NCBI GenBank assembly: GCA_903828645.1
Contig: CAIKNA010000053.1
Span: forward strand, 1-34,167
DNA from: an uncultured Bacteroidales bacterium
GTDB taxonomy: Bacteria > Bacteroidota > Bacteroidia > Bacteroidales > FEN-979
Direction: 5' to 3'
DNA: 34,167 nt
The notes under the pieces are model-generated. The model was not told where the DNA came from, did no database searches, and was given only the letters and a program-made list of their open reading frames with translations. The first letter of the stretch is position 1; the number at the start of each line of letters is the position of its first letter. The position numbers and the translations under genes are program-made. Shown piece by piece: positions 6,600 through 30,200 of the stretch.

Positions 6600-6601
6600 G
6601 T

Positions 6602-6695
6602 GAACATCGAATATTGAATATCGAATATTGAATAACGAATGTTGAAATTTGAACTGTTTTTGCATTCTGCAACTTGCAATTTGCATTTTGAACCT
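6602..6695. repeat. Heptamer array A, GAATATT and TGCAATT classes
   Basis: Eight consecutive 7-bp units at 6602-6657 all begin with GAA: GAACATC, GAATATT, GAATATC, GAATATT, GAATAAC, GAATGTT, GAAATTT, GAACTGT. After three bases, five more 7-bp units at 6661-6695 all begin with TG: TGCATTC, TGCAACT, TGCAATT, TGCATTT, TGAACCT. The block fills almost the whole trxB-purL gap, starting 3 bp after the trxB stop and ending 7 bp before the purL ATG. Read in the transcript direction, the first block contains TGA and stops translation. Confidence 0.85.
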
Positions 6696-6702
6696 TCCAC
6701 TC

Positions 6703-9700
6703 ATGATAACATTTTTCAGGAATTCTGATCATTTCTATGCTGTTGAAAGCCGGGAGAAACTTGGCGGCAGTGACCTTGAAAAATTAACCTGGCTGTTCGG
6801 CGGTGCGGAGTGCATCGCCGAACCTGTTTTACAGGGCACCTTTGTCGGGCCCAGGCGGGAGATGATCACCCCCTGGAGTACCAATGCCGTGGAAATCACA
6901 CAGAACATGGGAATCAGCGGCATCTCAAGGATAGAGGAATTTACGATTTACGATTTACGATTTACGAATGACAATTTACAATTGACGAATGACCCTTCAC
7001 CTGTAACGTGTCACGAGTCACGAGTCACTTCCTACGATCCCATGTTGCAGCACATCTACGAAGGTCTCGGCCAGGAGATCTTCCACATTCAGCATGAACC
7101 CGATCCTGTGCTCTTCATCGATGACATTGCTGCCTTTAATAGCCAGGAGGGACTGGCACTGAGCGATGATGAAATCGTGTACCTCAAGGAACTCAGCCGC
7201 AAAGTTGGCCGTAAGTTGACAGACAGCGAGGTTTTTGGGTTTTCCCAGGTCAATTCCGAACATTGCCGTCACAAGATTTTTAACGGCACATTTATCATCG
7301 ATGGGAAGGAGATGACCGAGTCGCTCTTTACCCTGATTAAAAAAACAGCCAAAAAGCAACCCGGTCTGCTGGTATCAGCTTACAAGGATAATGTTGCATT
7401 CATTCTCGGGCCGCAGATCGAACAATTTGCCCCGTGCAGGCAAAATGTAGCCGATTTCTTTGTCATCAAAGATATACAGTCGGTTATCTCCCTGAAGGCC
7501 GAAACACATAACTTTCCGACAACGGTGGAGCCTTTTAACGGCGCAGCCACCGGTTCGGGCGGCGAAATCCGCGATCGCATGGCAGGAGGCAAGGGAAGCG
7601 TTCCGATGACCGGTACGGCGGTTTATATGACTTCCTATCCAAGGCTGGATGGCGGGCGTTCATGGGAGAAAGGCATGGAGCCACGTCCTTGGCTTTACCA
7701 GACCCCGGAAGAGATTCTCATCAAGGCCTCAAACGGGGCGAGCGACTTTGGCAACAAGTTCGGACAGGCGCTCATCTGTGGTTCAGTGCTTACTTTTGAA
7801 CATGCCGGAAACGATCGCAGGTACGGTTATGACAAGGTGATTATGCAGGCCGGCGGGGTTGGTTTTGCCAAAAAGGAAGACAGCCTTAAAGACGAACCGA
7901 CGACAAATCAGCAGATTGTGGTCCTGGGCGGGGATAATTACCGCATCGGCATGGGGGGAGGCGCGGTATCATCGGTTGCCACCGGCGAATATGGCAACGC
8001 CATTGAACTCAATGCCGTTCAACGGTCGAACCCTGAAATGCAGAAGCGGGTATTCAATGCCATCCGTGCCATGACCGAAATGGATGTGAACCCGATCGTT
8101 TCCATTCATGATCATGGTGCCGGCGGACACCTCAACGCATTGTCGGAACTCATTGAAACCACTGGTGGAACCATTCAAATGGATCAGTTGCCTCTCGGCG
8201 ATCCTACCTTGTCTGCCAAAGAGATTGCCAGCAATGAGTCGCAGGAAAGGATGGGGTTGGTGCTGGCGGATAAAGATGTTGACCTCATGCAGGAAATTGC
8301 AAAACGCGAGCGGGCGCCTTTCTACATAGTCGGACGCACTACCGGTGATATGCAACTTGTTTTTGAGGAGCATCCGGGTGGTATCCGTCCCATCGACCTG
8401 AAACTGACGGACTTTTTCGGCAAGCCTCCCAGGACCATTCTTCATGATTCAACATTCGTTGTTCAGTATTCGAAATTGCTGTATGATCCGAAGAAACTGA
8501 AGGAATACCTTGACCAGGTGCTCCAGCTTGAAGCTGTCGCCTGCAAAGACTGGCTCACCAACAAAGTCGACCGCGCCGTAAGCGGAAAAATTGCCAAACA
8601 GCAGACCTGCGGGGCCATTCAGCTTCCGCTCAACAACGTGGGCGTGACTGCCCTTGATTACCAGGGAGTAAAGGGCATCGCCACCTCTCTCGGCCATGCG
8701 CCGGTTGCAGCGCTCATCAATCCGGCTGCCGGGTCGAGGCTTGCAATCTCCAAAGCCCTTTCCAACCTGGTATGGGCCCCGCTGTCCCATGGATTGAAGG
8801 GGGTTTCGCTCAGTGCCAACTGGATGTGGCCATGTAAAAATGCCGGGGAAGATGCCCGCCTATATTCAGCGGTAAAGGCAGTCAGCGATTTTGCCATTGC
8901 TCTCGGGATCAACATCCCCACCGGGAAGGATTCCCTTTCGATGACCCAGAAATATCCGGATGGCACTGTGGTTTATTCTCCCGGAACCGTGATCATTTCA
9001 GCAATAGGAGAGGTGTCGGATGTGAAAAAAGTGGTTAGTCCGAACCTGCTCCCTGATGATGATACGGCACTGATCTACATTCCCTTTTCCATAGGGGGTT
9101 TTGAATTGGGTGGCAGCAGTTTTGCCCAGGCATTGAACCAACTGGGAGATGAAACCCCCGATGTGGCCGATGCGGATTACTTTGTGGGTGTTTTTGAAAC
9201 AATCCAGGGGCTGATCCGGGAAGGATTGATTCTGGCCGGGCATGATGTTGCAGCAGGCGGACTCATCACAACACTTCTCGAAATGACCTTCCCGGTCGAA
9301 AATACGGGTCTTGAAATAACCCTGGACGCTTTGATCTCTGCAGATGCAAACCCTGCCGGGAAATCCGATCCAGCCAGGGTTCTGTTCAGCGAAAAGCCCG
9401 GTATTGTCATCCAGGTTAGAAACAGTGACCTGGAAAAATGGAAAAACGGCGACACCATTCTCCTCCCGGAATCGAAAATCGAAAATCGAAAATCGAAAAT
9501 CCTCCATGCATTCCCCATTGGCATAATAACCCGTCATCGTTCACTCAACCTCTCTTGCGGGGATGAATCCTGCTCCTTTGACATCGATGCGCTTAGAGAT
9601 ACCTGGTACAGGACCTCCTACCTTCTCGATCGCCGGCAATCGGGAGAAAAACTGGCGCTCGAACGGTTTACAAACTATAAAAAGCAGCCACTGGTATTCA

Positions 9701-10530
9701 CTTTCCAGCAGCGTTTTACAGGAAAGGCCATGCAATTCGGGATTGACCCGAAGCGGAGAAAACCATCGGGCGTGAAAGCGGCCATCATTCGTGAGAAGGG
9801 GGTGAACCGCGACCGCGACATGGCATGGGCGCTCTATCTTGCCGGGTTTGATGTGAAAGACATCCATATGACCGACCTGATCACCGGGCGTGAAAACCTC
9901 GAAGATGTCAACCTCATTGTGTTTGTGGGCGGATTTTCCAATTCTGATGTCCTCGGCTCAGCCAGGGGCTGGGCCGGTGCATTCCTTTACAATGACCGTG
10001 CTAAACTTGCGCTGGCTAACTTCTTCGCGAGGAACGATACGCTGAGCCTGGGTGTATGCAATGGTTGCCAGCTGCTTGTTGCACTCGGGCTTATTTATCC
10101 CGGTCATGAGAGGCAACCGTGGATGTCGTGGAACGATTCACACAAATACGAGTGTGCTTTTGTAGGTGTTGATATTCTCGAGAACGACACGGTGATGCTG
10201 AAAAGCCTCGCCGGATCGAAACTTGGTATATGGGTGGCTCATGGTGAGGGAAAATTCAACTTTCCACTCAAACAGGAGCAATACCACATTCCGGCCAGAT
10301 ATAGTTATCACGGTTACCCGGGAAATCCCAACGGGTCGCAATTCGATGCAGCCTGCATCGCTTCTGATGATGGAAGGCACCTTGCTATCATGCCCCACCT
10401 GGAAGATTCGGTTCTTCCATGGCAATGGGCTTGTTACCCCGGCGATCGCCGCGGAGATGAAATAACCCCCTGGATTGAGGCGTTTGTCAATGCAAGGGAA
10501 TGGATACAGAAAACTAAAAATCACTCATGA
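6703..10530 (+). CDS. purL: Phosphoribosylformylglycinamidine synthase, large single-chain form
   Basis: FGAM synthase makes formylglycinamidine ribonucleotide from FGAR, glutamine and ATP in purine synthesis. At 1275 residues it is the single-chain form, with the N-terminal domain, the two AIR-synthase-like halves and the glutaminase domain fused. Visible motifs include GFSQVNSEHCRHKIF, the ATP-site stretch around ETHNFPTTVEPFNGAATGSG, and HDHGAGGHLNALSE. The C-terminal glutaminase triad is C1119 (GVCNGCQLL), H1232 and E1234 (MPHLEDS). ATG 6703 (MITFFRN) is chosen over an in-frame TTG at 6649, whose extra residues come only from repeat DNA. Two in-frame heptamer arrays are built into the gene: residues about 79-109 in an N-terminal linker and about 924-933 between motor-like domains. 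Neither touches a catalytic motif. The stop overlaps the next start in ATGA. Confidence 0.96.
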   Translation: MITFFRNSDHFYAVESREKLGGSDLEKLTWLFGGAECIAEPVLQGTFVGPRREMITPWSTNAVEITQNMGISGISRIEEFTIYDLRFTNDNLQLTNDPSPVTCHESRVTSYDPMLQHIYEGLGQEIFHIQHEPDPVLFIDDIAAFNSQEGLALSDDEIVYLKELSRKVGRKLTDSEVFGFSQVNSEHCRHKIFNGTFIIDGKEMTESLFTLIKKTAKKQPGLLVSAYKDNVAFILGPQIEQFAPCRQNVADFFVIKDIQSVISLKAETHNFPTTVEPFNGAATGSGGEIRDRMAGGKGSVPMTGTAVYMTSYPRLDGGRSWEKGMEPRPWLYQTPEEILIKASNGASDFGNKFGQALICGSVLTFEHAGNDRRYGYDKVIMQAGGVGFAKKEDSLKDEPTTNQQIVVLGGDNYRIGMGGGAVSSVATGEYGNAIELNAVQRSNPEMQKRVFNAIRAMTEMDVNPIVSIHDHGAGGHLNALSELIETTGGTIQMDQLPLGDPTLSAKEIASNESQERMGLVLADKDVDLMQEIAKRERAPFYIVGRTTGDMQLVFEEHPGGIRPIDLKLTDFFGKPPRTILHDSTFVVQYSKLLYDPKKLKEYLDQVLQLEAVACKDWLTNKVDRAVSGKIAKQQTCGAIQLPLNNVGVTALDYQGVKGIATSLGHAPVAALINPAAGSRLAISKALSNLVWAPLSHGLKGVSLSANWMWPCKNAGEDARLYSAVKAVSDFAIALGINIPTGKDSLSMTQKYPDGTVVYSPGTVIISAIGEVSDVKKVVSPNLLPDDDTALIYIPFSIGGFELGGSSFAQALNQLGDETPDVADADYFVGVFETIQGLIREGLILAGHDVAAGGLITTLLEMTFPVENTGLEITLDALISADANPAGKSDPARVLFSEKPGIVIQVRNSDLEKWKNGDTILLPESKIENRKSKILHAFPIGIITRHRSLNLSCGDESCSFDIDALRDTWYRTSYLLDRRQSGEKLALERFTNYKKQPLVFTFQQRFTGKAMQFGIDPKRRKPSGVKAAIIREKGVNRDRDMAWALYLAGFDVKDIHMTDLITGRENLEDVNLIVFVGGFSNSDVLGSARGWAGAFLYNDRAKLALANFFARNDTLSLGVCNGCQLLVALGLIYPGHERQPWMSWNDSHKYECAFVGVDILENDTVMLKSLAGSKLGIWVAHGEGKFNFPLKQEQYHIPARYSYHGYPGNPNGSQFDAACIASDDGRHLAIMPHLEDSVLPWQWACYPGDRRGDEITPWIEAFVNAREWIQKTKNHS
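6938..7028. repeat. Heptamer array B inside purL, 13 units of NNNTNAC
   Basis: Thirteen units in unbroken 7-bp register: AATTTAC, GATTTAC three times, GAATGAC, AATTTAC, AATTGAC, GAATGAC, CCTTCAC, CTGTAAC, GTGTCAC, GAGTCAC twice. Every unit has T at position 4 and AC at positions 6-7. The array passes from the GATTTAC class to the GTCAC class seen separately elsewhere in the window. It is translated as about 30 residues ([14 protein letters not shown] and onward to ESRVTS) in a linker of FGAM synthase. Confidence 0.92.
9474..9501. repeat. Heptamer array C inside purL, GAAAATC units
   Basis: Four perfect tandem copies of GAAAATC, preceded by a partial unit, are read in frame as ESKIENRKSKIL near residues 922-933 of FGAM synthase. 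The reverse complement, GATTTTC, differs from the common GATTTAC unit at one base. Confidence 0.88.
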
Positions 10531-16915: not shown

Positions 16916-17380
16916 GTGGAAAAACTCAACCTGCCCGACATAGCCGCCCGCATCCGCATGGGGAAGAACGGGAAACAGGAGATTTATGACGGGATCAGGA
17001 AGAAGTTTGTCAGGCTTACCCCCGAAGAGTGGGTCCGGCAGCATTTTCTCCATTTCATGATCCTTCAGCTTGGTTTTCCGGCCACCCTCATCGTGGTGGA
17101 AGGGGCTATGAAATATAACAACATGGCAAAACGGTTTGATATCCTGGCTTATCGGACCGATGGAAAACCCTGCATGGTGGTTGAATGTAAAAGCCCGGGT
17201 GTGGAAATCACCCAGGCGGTCTTTGACCAGGTCGCCATGTACAACATGACCCTCACCGTCGATTACCTGGCGGTTACCAACGGAATGGCCCACTATGCCT
17301 GCAAAATCGATCACAGCAGCCGAACCTACACGTTTTTAGAGGAGATCCCCCCCTTTCTAATCGTAAATCAAAAATCGTAA
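16916..17380 (+). CDS. Orphan HsdR_N-type PD-(D/E)XK domain protein
   Basis: This 154-residue protein consists of the N-terminal domain of type I restriction HsdR subunits only, with no helicase part. The nuclease-fold residues are visible as D75 (KRFDILAY) and E90-C-K92 (CMVVECKSPG). There is no HsdM, HsdS or helicase nearby, so it is not a restriction system. Such single-domain proteins are widespread in Bacteroidota beside holA; their function is unknown, and a DNA repair or replication role is inference. The start is GTG at 16916, because an in-frame stop lies at 16895 and the family begins with this helix. The last residues (LIVNQKS) and the TAA stop are supplied by the heptamer array that follows, so the original C-terminus may have been replaced. 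Confidence 0.85.
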   Translation: MEKLNLPDIAARIRMGKNGKQEIYDGIRKKFVRLTPEEWVRQHFLHFMILQLGFPATLIVVEGAMKYNNMAKRFDILAYRTDGKPCMVVECKSPGVEITQAVFDQVAMYNMTLTVDYLAVTNGMAHYACKIDHSSRTYTFLEEIPPFLIVNQKS

Positions 17381-17425
17381 ATCAAAAATCGTAAATCGTA
17401 AATCGTAAATCGTAAATCGTAAATT
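17363..17425. repeat. Heptamer array D, GTAAATC units
   Basis: Nine tandem 7-bp units: GTAAATC, AAAAATC, GTAAATC, AAAAATC, then GTAAATC four times and GTAAATT. It is the reverse complement of the GATTTAC class. It covers the last codons and the stop of the HsdR_N gene and runs into the gap before DUF3822. In the transcript direction all three frames meet a TAA. Confidence 0.93.
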
Positions 17426-18930: not shown

Positions 18931-18958
18931 AATTTACGATTTGCGATTTACGATTTAC
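18931..18958. repeat. Heptamer array E, GATTTAC units
   Basis: Four units, AATTTAC, GATTTGC, GATTTAC, GATTTAC, followed by a partial GATT. The array starts 4 bp after the rsmD stop and fills the gap between two convergent genes. Confidence 0.88.
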
Positions 18959-18964
18959 GATTGA

Positions 18965-19832: not shown

Positions 19833-19916
19833 TCGTAACACGCTACACGTGAAAGAAGAAAGATGACATGTCACGAATCTCGCGTCACCCGTCACCCGTC
19901 ACCTGTCACCCGTAAC
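19833..19916. repeat. Heptamer array F, GTCACCC class
   Basis: Twelve units keep a 7-bp register. The best part, 19861-19916, reads AGATGAC, ATGTCAC, GAATCTC, GCGTCAC, CCGTCAC, CCGTCAC, CTGTCAC, CCGTAAC; seven of these eight fit NNNTNAC. The units at 19833-19860 are more degenerate. It lies between the stop of PEP carboxykinase and the start of pduO (both minus). In their transcript direction it reads GGTGACG and so carries TGA stops. Confidence 0.88.
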
Positions 19917-21715: not shown

Positions 21716-21743
21716 GATTTACGATTTACGATTTACGATTTAC
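21716..21743. repeat. Heptamer array G, four perfect GATTTAC units
   Basis: Four identical units followed by GATTGTT, in the 39-bp gap between the aminotransferase stop and the PEP carboxykinase ATG. In the minus-strand transcript they read GTAAATC and stop all frames. Confidence 0.93.
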
Positions 21744-21752
21744 GATTGTTCA

Positions 21753-22955
21753 CTAATTTAATTTTTCAAGGGCTGATTTGATTCTTCTCACCGCCTCGGT
21801 GAGTTTGTCCTTGCTGGTGGCATAAGAGAAACGGATGCAGTTAGGGTCGCCAAAGGCATCGCCGGGAACGAGTGCCACAAAAACATTGTTGAGCAGGTAC
21901 ATGCAGAAATCATTGGCGTTTGTGATTATCGTATTCCCTGTTGATTTTCCGAAATACCAGGAGATGTCGGGGAAGATGTAAAATGCACCATCGGGGTGGT
22001 TGAGTTTCATGCCAGGAATCCCTGCCAGAAGCTGCAGCATCAGGTCGCGGCGTTCACGGAAGGCTGCCTGCATGATCTCCATATCGGGTGTGGCGGAGGG
22101 CTCGGTGATAAATGCGGTGAGTGCAGCACGCTGGGCAATGGATGATGCCCCGGAGGTAAACTGGCCCTGGAGCTTGTCGCAGGCTTTAGCAATGGCAAGC
22201 GGGGCCGCAATGAACCCGATTCTCCATCCGGTCATGGCGTAACCTTTTGAAACTCCGTTGATCAGTACGACCTGATCTTTGATAAAATCGAACTGGCAGA
22301 TACTTTCATGCTTGCCGACGAAATTGATATGCTCATAAATCTCATCCGCCACAATAGTGATCGCGGGATATTTGACCATCACCTCTGCTATTCCACGCAG
22401 TTCTTCACGGGTGTAAACCGAACCGGTTGGATTGCAGGGAGAACTGTAGATCATCAGCCTGGTTTTTGGTGTGATGGCAGCTTCGAGTTGCCGGGGCGTA
22501 ATTTTAAAATTGTTTTCGATCGTGGCAGGGATAAAGACAGATTTTCCTTCGGCCACCTTGATGATCTCCTTGTAGGAAACCCAGTATGGAGCAGGCACAA
22601 GTACCTCATCACCCGGATTAACCAGGCTGAGCATGACATTGGCAATAGACTGTTTGGCACCGGTGGAAACCACGATCTGGCTGCAATCGTAATCAAGGTT
22701 GTTGTCACGCTTCAGTTTAACGCATATCGCCTTGCGCAGGTCTTCATAACCGGCAACAGGGGAATAAAAAGTATAGTTCTGATCAATGCCTTCTTTAGCG
22801 GCTTTTTTAATGTAGTCAGGGGTGTTGAAATCGGGTTCGCCAAGGCTGAGGTTGATCACATCATGACCTTGAGCTTTGAGTTCGCGGCTCTTACGCGACA
22901 TGGCCAGCGTTTCACTTTCGGCCAGGTACTGGATTCTGTTAGCGAGTGTTGTCAT
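21753..22955 (-). CDS. aspC: Pyridoxal-phosphate aminotransferase, aspartate type
   Basis: This 400-residue class I aminotransferase is closest to the bacterial aspartate aminotransferase Ib group. The PLP lysine is K237 in NGVSKGYAMTGWRIGF; other active-site residues are N175 in SSPCNPTGSVY, D204 and Y207 in VADEIYEH, and the substrate arginine in CIRFSYATS. It likely converts aspartate and 2-oxoglutarate to oxaloacetate and glutamate. The order aminotransferase then PEP carboxykinase suggests aspartate carbon is passed to PEP. An exact minus-strand -7 element at 22990-22997 gives a leader of about 29 nt. Related specificities (aromatic, prephenate) cannot be excluded. Confidence 0.92.
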   Translation of the reverse strand: MTTLANRIQYLAESETLAMSRKSRELKAQGHDVINLSLGEPDFNTPDYIKKAAKEGIDQNYTFYSPVAGYEDLRKAICVKLKRDNNLDYDCSQIVVSTGAKQSIANVMLSLVNPGDEVLVPAPYWVSYKEIIKVAEGKSVFIPATIENNFKITPRQLEAAITPKTRLMIYSSPCNPTGSVYTREELRGIAEVMVKYPAITIVADEIYEHINFVGKHESICQFDFIKDQVVLINGVSKGYAMTGWRIGFIAAPLAIAKACDKLQGQFTSGASSIAQRAALTAFITEPSATPDMEIMQAAFRERRDLMLQLLAGIPGMKLNHPDGAFYIFPDISWYFGKSTGNTIITNANDFCMYLLNNVFVALVPGDAFGDPNCIRFSYATSKDKLTEAVRRIKSALEKLN

Positions 22956-23040: not shown

Positions 23041-23096
23041 GTTTCACCCATCACCTGTCACCTGTCACGTGTCACGTGTCAATTGTCATTTGTCAC
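23041..23096. repeat. Heptamer array H, GTCACNN class
   Basis: Eight 7-bp units: GTTTCAC, CCATCAC, CTGTCAC, CTGTCAC, GTGTCAC, GTGTCAA, TTGTCAT, TTGTCAC. Six of eight fit NNNTNAC and all keep TCA. Two GAATTGN units at 23016-23029 may extend it to the left. It lies between divergent promoters, about 44 bp from the minus -7 element and 36 bp from the plus -7 element. Confidence 0.88.
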
Positions 23097-29464: not shown

Positions 29465-29468
29465 TTTG

Positions 29469-29489
29469 ATTTACGATTTACGATTTACA
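29469..29489. repeat. Heptamer array I, three GATTTAC units
   Basis: Three perfect units followed by AATTGCC. The array covers the junction between the AlkD-like gene and the GNAT gene. In their transcript direction it reads GTAAATC and supplies the TAA stop and last codons of the AlkD-like gene. Confidence 0.9.
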
Positions 29490-30200
29490 ATTGCCTCTTC
29501 TAAAACGGTCTTTTCCCTCCTTTGTCATCTTTTCCGTAGCATATTGAAAAATCAGGCGGGGAGAAGTCTCCTTGAATTTTAGTAAAAAGGCCTCGGCGGG
29601 TAATGGTTGCTTTTTCCAGGTTTCACGCAGAAACCAGCCAAGCCCCTGGTGTACTTCACGGGCGGGATCGTGCATCATCGGTTCGATGAAATTGTAAAAC
29701 GGGCTGAAATCGGCAGAATGTTTCATCGGTTTGATCAGGCTCACCACGGCTGCCCTCCGCTGAAATTTATTGGAAGCACTCCTCCACAATTCAATCGATT
29801 GGAGACCAATCAATTTTTTTTTGAAGAATAGGTTCATCAACTCCCCGCAGATGTAATCCGTTTGTGCCCAGTTTGTGATGCCAACTGAGAACCAGCTTTC
29901 AACGGTTTTAAAAACACCGGCTGTCCAGGATTTTTGAAAACCAAGAACCAGCTGAATGGCAATGACCGTCATTTCATACTTTGGAGATTTCACAAGAACC
30001 AGGGAAGTGTCAAGGATGAAATCCTGCGTGATGCCCGGCAATGAAAGGATCTCTTTTACCTTGCCATTAACCTGCTCCTTGTTTAATCCATATGCATCAT
30101 AGCCCTCTTTGAAATATTTTGCATATTTCTCAACGATGGCCGGGTTTGTGTTTGCTTCGCCAAAATCCCGGAGGCCGGTAAAAACGTCATCAGTTGTCAT
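29478..30200 (-). CDS. AlkD-like DNA alkylation repair protein
   Basis: This 240-residue protein is a HEAT-like helical repeat DNA glycosylase of the AlkD/AlkC-related family, which removes or protects alkylated bases. The segments LVLVKSPKYEMTVIAIQLV, SVGITNWAQTDYIC, KFQRRAAVVSLI and HQGLGWFLRETWKK are typical helices of the family; the Trp-Ala-x-x-Asp region corresponds to the part that contacts the lesion. Specific catalytic activity cannot be confirmed. An exact minus-strand -7 element at 30276-30283 lies about 80 nt upstream of the ATG. Its last five codons (GNCKS) and stop come from the heptamer array, so the natural C-terminus may have been changed. Confidence 0.85.
   Translation of the reverse strand: MTTDDVFTGLRDFGEANTNPAIVEKYAKYFKEGYDAYGLNKEQVNGKVKEILSLPGITQDFILDTSLVLVKSPKYEMTVIAIQLVLGFQKSWTAGVFKTVESWFSVGITNWAQTDYICGELMNLFFKKKLIGLQSIELWRSASNKFQRRAAVVSLIKPMKHSADFSPFYNFIEPMMHDPAREVHQGLGWFLRETWKKQPLPAEAFLLKFKETSPRLIFQYATEKMTKEGKDRFRRGNCKS

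What the first reader, a model, noticed from the sequence alone, without database searches (positions are those of the whole stretch)
6938..7028. Thirteen-unit array inside purL that changes sequence class without losing register
All 13 units fit NNNTNAC. The left units are GATTTAC-like, the middle ones are GAATGAC/AATTGAC, and the right ones are GTGTCAC/GAGTCAC. This joins two classes found separately elsewhere and fixes their relative phase. The conserved positions suggest a real constraint on T4, A6 and C7 rather than random drift. The array is translated as about 30 linker residues in an essential enzyme.
Basis: partly seen in the sequence, partly recalled or inferred. Interest (0 to 1): 0.85.

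Follow-up and report, generated by a model that had tools for sequence, protein, structure and literature searches.

The report
Seven-base repeat array inside purL
A run of thirteen seven-base DNA repeats sits in frame in a floppy loop of the essential purine enzyme gene purL; it is built as two facing arms, like the mirror-image repeat arms that flank a little-understood small gene family (23S rRNA intervening-sequence proteins) in this bacterium's relatives, so it may be a leftover or empty form of that element.

Summary
In detail: 13 of 13 units at 6938-7028 fit NNNTNAC (longest run in 30 shuffles: 4), in frame in a genuine purL of a Bacteroidales draft genome. A period-7 linker is found in 20 of 30 family purL genes and 0 of 56 other parsed relatives; a structure model makes it a low-confidence loop.

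The reading changes. The "class switch" is a strand switch: 8 plus units (6938-6993), 9-nt spacer, 4 minus units (7003-7030). In the stretches sampled, close opposite arrays always face each other, and 11 of 13 other pairs fold well (median z -8.8). The purL copy keeps the orientation but not the complementarity (z about 0). Across purL species nearly all arms keep one phase although unit number and class change.

Facing, unit-matched arrays also flank PF05635 (23S rRNA intervening-sequence protein) genes in relatives: both flanks periodic in 18 of 31 loci, 0 of 206 control ORFs. At one orthologous site some species have the gene, others arrays only. Arm sequence follows protein distance (Mantel r 0.52).

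Best explanation: purL carries a gene-less, in-frame form of an intervening-sequence-like element with tandem-array arms. Architecture and association are shown; mobility and descent are inferred. Main rival: ordinary heptamer slippage.

The parts
6649..10530 (+). purL ORF (phosphoribosylformylglycinamidine synthase); likely Met start at 6703
6938..6993 (+). plus arm: 8 units of NNNT(G/T)AC (GATTTAC, GAATGAC, AATTTAC, AATTGAC)
6994..7002 (.). 9-nt spacer between the arms (CCTTCACCT)
7003..7030 (-). minus arm: 4 units GT(A/C)ANNN, i.e. NNNT(G/T)AC on the minus strand
9470..9501 (-). second heptamer array in the same purL (AATCGAA x4.6, peptide around KIENRKSKI), in a loop that also varies among relatives
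6601..6646 (+). heptamer array (TGAATAT/CGAATAT) between the upstream gene and purL
17359..17424 (-). heptamer array of the same vocabulary (AATCGTA, minus-strand GATTTAC)
18932..18962 (+). heptamer array (ATTTACG) starting 5 nt after an ORF end
19883..19913 (-). heptamer array (GGGTGAC class on the minus strand) overlapping the start of a cobalamin adenosyltransferase ORF
21716..21747 (+). intergenic heptamer array (GATTTAC)
23044..23095 (-). heptamer array changing class in register (AAATGAC, AATTGAC, ACGTGAC, AGGTGAC on the minus strand)
29468..29492 (+). heptamer array (GATTTAC) in a 13-nt gap between two ORFs, overlapping the end of one

Best explanation
The array is an in-frame, gene-less copy of an element whose ends are two facing tandem arrays of 7-8 bp units. 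The full form carries a PF05635 gene (four-helix-bundle 23S rRNA intervening-sequence protein) between arms that can pair into a long hairpin; array-only forms fill intergenic gaps. An array-only form entered the short loop of PurL's N-terminal domain in an ancestor of this family. The loop tolerates tens of residues, and selection then allowed mainly whole-unit changes that keep frame. In this species the two arms have drifted to different unit classes, so the mRNA hairpin is gone. Shown: the array, the variable loop, the facing architecture, near phase-locked turnover at purL, and the association of such arrays with PF05635 genes. Inferred: descent of the purL copy from such an element, mobility, and recognition of the TNAC core by a PF05635-type protein.
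For: Facing pairs: in the window and the G000, G013, G018, G002 and G001 stretches all 6 adjacent array pairs closer than 500 bp are plus-then-minus, none the reverse. Hairpins: of 13 other such pairs 11 have z below -4, median -8.8. PF05635 flanks: both periodic in 18 of 31 loci, 0 of 206 control ORFs; flank-to-flank inverted match above 12 in 26 of 31, control maximum 12. Arms of a locus match each other (4-mer cosine 0.76 against 0.10 between loci; own arm the best match in 18 of 22) and arm composition follows protein distance (Mantel r 0.52, 0 of 2000 permutations, 33 loci). sdhA-sdhB gap, the 30 best SdhB loci of 57 genomes: PF05635 gene 4 (periodic arms scored in 3 of these), array only 16, none at threshold 8, unparsed 2. 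In G000 a PF05635 gene (L222) lies between GATTTAC arms, the purL left-arm unit. At purL 11 of 12 plus chains and 13 of 16 minus chains share one phase to the flanking conserved residues. Of 51 phylum genomes with the array pattern 49 have PF05635, against 249 of 344 without (Fisher p 8e-5; the two lists were matched by hand).
Against: No PF05635 gene or remnant was seen in purL or in the short spacers read, so descent is not shown. The window copy does not fold (z 0.0 and 0.24). Outside the family, PF05635 loci rarely have strong tandem arms: both flanks periodic in 1 of 30, inverted match above 12 in 13 of 30 against 2 of 31 controls. The arm core tracks the protein tree only in part: 6 of the 7 TNAC-labelled loci lie in one 11-row clade, but 5 of its rows are not labelled TNAC, and NAG labels occur in several clades. 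Arm vocabulary is densest in the own genome in 4 of 6 tests. Of 24 long purL linkers 8 show neither arm by the motif used and only 6 show plus-then-minus; 10 of 30 family linkers have no period-7 signal. L221 in G000 has no arms; L252 arms look direct rather than inverted. Kinship is not corrected for in the Fisher, binomial or Mantel figures. No empty site with target duplication was found.
Confidence: 0.5

Rival explanations
1. Ordinary heptanucleotide simple-sequence repeat: polymerase slippage at 7 bp (proposed for bacterial heptamers) expanded a seed in a tolerant loop; no element is involved and PF05635 genes merely settle in such hairpins.
For: Heptanucleotides were the most abundant repeat class in most genomes, with slippage proposed (Mrazek 2007 as cited in PMC4679880, passages). 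G033 has 4 x GAATTAC within the unexpanded 9-aa linker, as if formed in place. In the window and the G000 stretches periodic segments are nearly all of 7 bp or its multiples.
Against: Slippage alone gives direct, not facing, arrays; the close pairs found are all convergent. Arms of one locus match each other and follow PF05635 distance. Three sister species also have 8-bp arrays.
Confidence: 0.34
2. Functional DNA or RNA site: the TNAC units are a recognition array (regulator, RNase or terminator), kept in purL for regulation.
For: T4, A6 and C7 in 13 of 13 units; other facing pairs mostly fold strongly; a translational role was suggested for TAACTGA arrays (PMC4679880, abstract and passages).
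Against: Six of 30 family purL linkers are still 9 aa, two of these with an array or a decayed one; 56 other parsed relatives have none; unit class at the purL site differs between species; the window copy has no hairpin.
Confidence: 0.08
3. Protein-level coincidence: a repetitive peptide linker selected as protein.
For: Some species show a seven-residue peptide period.
Against: The same units occur in intergenic DNA; a 7-bp unit runs through all three codon phases; peptides differ widely among species.
Confidence: 0.02

Closest known systems
23S rRNA intervening sequences (IVS) with S23p/IVP ORF, e.g. Coxiella (PMC4990558, abstract and passages seen)
   Same: PF05635-type ORF inside a terminal inverted stem (28 bp there), and tandem heptamers (GACAGAT, unit number varying between strains) just upstream of the ORF in that published case
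   Different: Here the elements read lie between protein genes, arms are longer tandem arrays, and the purL copy has no ORF and no stem; RNase III excision not tested
Bacterial heptanucleotide repeats: TAACTGA arrays (PMC4679880, abstract and passages), GGGAATC-type repeats (PMC4692102, passages), Calothrix repeats (as cited in PMC4692102)
   Same: 7-bp tandem units, mostly intergenic; TAACTGA sets can be split by related heptamers and it also fits NNNTNAC by rotation; some sets lie inside ORFs, one in purC
   Different: Described mainly as direct repeats (one inverted case in Beggiatoaceae); 'S23', 'helix bundle' and 'intervening' have 0 occurrences in PMC4679880; no facing-arm architecture in the passages seen
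MITE/REP-type gene-less inverted elements (recalled, not from a call)
   Same: Short non-coding inverted elements related to gene-bearing ones
   Different: No transposase or RAYT link tested; no target duplication seen
Avd proteins of diversity-generating retroelements (PMC10053308, passages)
   Same: That paper notes that PF05635 resembles Avd
   Different: No diversity-generating cassette was looked for; one RVT_1 match in the genome, its surroundings not examined

Membership tests
23S rRNA IVS / S23p element | PF05635 ORF within the element | tested here: not met
   purL insert is array only; met by the related loci
23S rRNA IVS / S23p element | terminal inverted arms forming a stable stem | tested here: not met
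   purL arms face each other but fold no better than shuffles (z 0.0, 0.24); the three PF05635 elements folded (L222, L232, L236) have paired arms
23S rRNA IVS / S23p element | location in 23S rRNA | tested here: not met
   inside purL
23S rRNA IVS / S23p element | RNase III excision | not testable with these tools
   needs RNA experiments
heptanucleotide tandem repeat (LSSR/STRR kind) | head-to-tail 7-bp units, many loci per genome | tested here: met
heptanucleotide tandem repeat (LSSR/STRR kind) | single direct orientation in an array | tested here: not met
   plus arm then minus arm
MITE-like element | mobility shown by filled and empty sites with target duplication | tested here: inconclusive
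   sdhA-sdhB site filled differently between species; no duplication identified

The most novel reading that the evidence does not exclude
A family of selfish elements in Bacteroidota is defined by terminal inverted tandem arrays of 7-8 bp units that a PF05635 (Avd-like four-helix-bundle) protein recognises through a core sequence (such as TNAC or NAG) that changes with the protein. Arms turn over unit by unit while staying matched to each other, and gene-less copies spread into intergenic gaps and, rarely, in frame into essential genes such as purL. Kinship of PF05635 to Avd would make a reverse-transcriptase-assisted, template-copied array plausible.
Probability: 0.28. Interest if true: 0.9.

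Novelty: new variant of a known kind. Interest (0 to 1): 0.66.

Why it matters
PF05635 proteins have no known function, and the function and origin of rRNA intervening sequences were still called unclear over 25 years after their discovery (PMC4990558, passages). Heptamer arrays have mostly been put down to slippage. A link between the two, with arm sequence following protein distance, gives a directly testable target (does the protein bind its own arms?) and offers a reason why odd seven-residue repeats appear inside a conserved bacterial enzyme.

Tried and rejected
Protein-level coincidence was rejected: the same units occur in intergenic DNA and linkers of other species share little peptide. 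Ordinary genes between facing arrays (an aminotransferase ORF at 21753-22955; a decarboxylase-like ORF in L155, judged by eye) show that over distances above 500 bp array pairs mean little: orientations there are mixed. A search of papers for array letters listed 4 papers, by title unrelated. Searches for print on array-flanked IVP genes (PMC open-licence papers only) listed none that I recognised as describing it; apart from five papers opened for passages (PMC4679880, PMC4692102, PMC4990558, PMC10053308; four in fact) all were seen as listings only and long lists were cut. The vocabulary-sharing test was only partly favourable. Outside the family the tandem nature of the arms is weak. The first looks at the sdhA-sdhB gap used search expressions that missed many gene ends; only one search is counted. 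The reversed-pattern control is uninformative because the motif reads alike backwards.

Full report
Observation. The thirteen units are there exactly as described: 13 of 13 fit NNNTNAC over 6938-7028, against a longest run of 4 in 30 dinucleotide shuffles and 4 at the other periods tried (5, 6, 8-12) in the same window. They lie in purL: the ORF 6649-10530 matches solved PurL chains and PurL Pfam domains, the array falling in the N-terminal domain region before the FGAR-AT linker domain. The best named purL relatives are mostly uncultured Bacteroidales. The window is contig 53 of a 5.1 Mb draft genome of 409 contigs.

It is a DNA-level repeat common in the genome. A four-unit NNNTNAC pattern hits G000 382 and 346 times on the two strands, against 55 and 89 for the reversed pattern. 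The stricter RAWTKAC x3 pattern hits 36 of 61 genomes: 17 of 19 in the genus (own genome included), 17 of 18 in other genera of the family, 2 of 24 in other families of the order; the reversed pattern hits 3 of the 61. It hits 51 of 395 genomes drawn evenly from the phylum. In the window and the G000 stretches the periodic segments are nearly all of period 7 or its multiples, while three of four sister species sampled also have period 8.

Anatomy. The right-hand class is the left-hand motif on the other strand. With plus units NNNT(G/T)AC and minus units GT(A/C)ANNN the array reads as 8 plus units (6938-6993), a 9-nt spacer and 4 minus units (7003-7030). Facing pairs are the rule in what was sampled: in the window and stretches of five genomes (G000, G013, G018, G002, G001) the 6 adjacent pairs closer than 500 bp are all plus-then-minus; same-strand arrays within 30 bp were merged, and the G000 stretches L141-L160 were chosen for carrying array hits, not pairs. 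Ten more facing pairs and one same-strand pair came from 20 other stretches, nine of which were picked because the match lists showed a pair. Thirteen such pairs other than purL, some of them picked ones, fold as RNA with median z -8.8 (range -15.9 to -0.9, 11 below -4); the purL copy has z 0.0 and 0.24. Hairpin loss is not uniform at purL: linkers of 22 aa or more have median z -1.1, but G018, G013, G032, G012 and G014 still fold (z -3.8 to -5.3).

The purL site in relatives. The other 56 have linkers between RIEEF and DPML of 8-19 aa (9 aa in 39), with a period-7 score of at most 5 and no two-unit TNAC chain. In 30 family members the linker is 9-42 aa and has a period-7 score of 10 or more in 20. 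Of the 24 longer than 9 aa, 11 are 9+7k aa (binomial p 2e-4, kinship ignored); by the TNAC motif 6 are plus-then-minus, 5 plus only, 5 minus only and 8 neither, some of the latter having other repeat classes and some none. The arms keep phase to the flanking conserved residues: 11 of 12 plus chains and 13 of 16 minus chains share one phase, while 13 facing pairs elsewhere show all seven offsets. So at purL an array shared by descent seems to have changed by whole units and swapped unit class in register; that the array abuts conserved codons may add to the phase lock. AlphaFold2 on residues 1-330 from Met 6703 (mean pLDDT 69, pTM 0.49) gives about 50 over most of the insert, as coil between confident strands 74-82 and 116-122. 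A second loop of the same protein carries another heptamer array (9470-9501). In-gene arrays are rare: of 51 heptamer arrays in 539 kb of G000, 4 lie inside long stop-free frames, two of them in purL.

The PF05635 link. A 421-nt spacer between facing arrays in another family of the class (G159, L206) holds a broken PF05635 gene; a 429-nt one (G224, L204) holds a nucleotidyltransferase-domain ORF. G000 has 5 PF05635 genes. By eye 4 of the 5 are flanked by inverted short-unit arrays, L222 by GATTTAC arms; three of these (L223-L225) were not recovered in the scripted test. In the scripted test of 31 usable loci out of 35 (5 from G000 plus the best-scoring one from each of 30 relatives), both 250-bp flanks are periodic in 18, against 0 of 206 control ORFs of 90-250 aa (either flank in 14 of 206); control ORFs are open frames, not annotated genes. 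Flank-to-flank inverted match exceeds 12 in 26 of 31; the control maximum is 12. Three whole elements folded have their arms paired. Arms of the same locus match (cosine 0.76 against 0.10; own arm best in 18 of 22) and arm composition follows protein distance (Mantel r 0.52, 0 of 2000; 33 loci, kinship and shared sites not removed). In the protein tree (few columns, many weak forks) 8 of 9 sdh-site copies fall in one 12-row clade in which 9 loci have arms labelled NAG (such as GATTAGS, GGCATGA); 6 of the 7 loci labelled TNAC, the purL vocabulary, fall in another, 11-row clade, the seventh being GATTTAC-armed L222 on a very long branch. The fit is partial: the other five rows of that clade are labelled otherwise or unscored (L243 as NAG), and NAG labels also occur in other clades. 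Outside the family the association is weaker: both flanks periodic in 1 of 30 loci, inverted match above 12 in 13 of 30 against 2 of 31 controls.

Gene-bearing and gene-less at one site. SdhB was found in 57 of 61 genomes. In the sdhA-sdhB gap of the 30 best-matching loci, 4 hold a PF05635 gene (periodic arms above threshold in 3 of them), 16 hold arrays only (GATTTAC, TGAATAT, AAATGCA, AAAGAAT, GAATTAC and others), 8 show none at the threshold (several with weaker repeats by eye) and 2 were unparsed; 5 further loci were added because they were known to carry the gene. At the genome level 49 of 51 array-positive genomes have PF05635 against 249 of 344 array-negative ones (p 8e-5; matched by hand, test; kinship and genome size ignored).

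Interpretation. The purL array is best read as an in-frame, array-only relative of PF05635 elements that has lost its hairpin. It resembles, but is not a member of, the 23S rRNA intervening sequences: it lacks the ORF, the stem and the location. A published case shows tandem heptamers next to the ORF in the Coxiella 23S intervening sequence, with unit number varying among strains (PMC4990558, abstract and passages). PF05635 is noted elsewhere as resembling the retroelement protein Avd (PMC10053308, passages). Mobility, recognition and descent are inferences; slippage in a tolerant loop remains the main rival.

Noticed in passing
G000:C329:3-1238: A second purL fragment (69% identity) in the same draft genome: a second copy or contamination (listed contamination 4.57%).
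   Followed up: no
L163, L164, L172, L175, L176: Sister species carry octamer arrays (GGAC and GTAAAC cores among others), sometimes opposite a heptamer arm.
   Followed up: partly
L204 10521-11005: Facing heptamer arms around a nucleotidyltransferase-domain ORF (PF01909) instead of a PF05635 gene.
   Followed up: partly
L252 (G056): A PF05635 locus whose two strong heptamer flanks look direct rather than inverted.
   Followed up: no
L263 (G015), sdhA-sdhB gap: A long AAAGAAT array (score 116) fills most of the gap.
   Followed up: no
L141 16743-16900: A G+C-rich 24-bp repeat array unlike the heptamers.
   Followed up: no
window 9470-9501: Second heptamer array inside purL; the matching loop in some relatives holds other repeat peptides (e.g. 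FNIQYSTF-like, NWKLEIGNWKLENF).
   Followed up: partly
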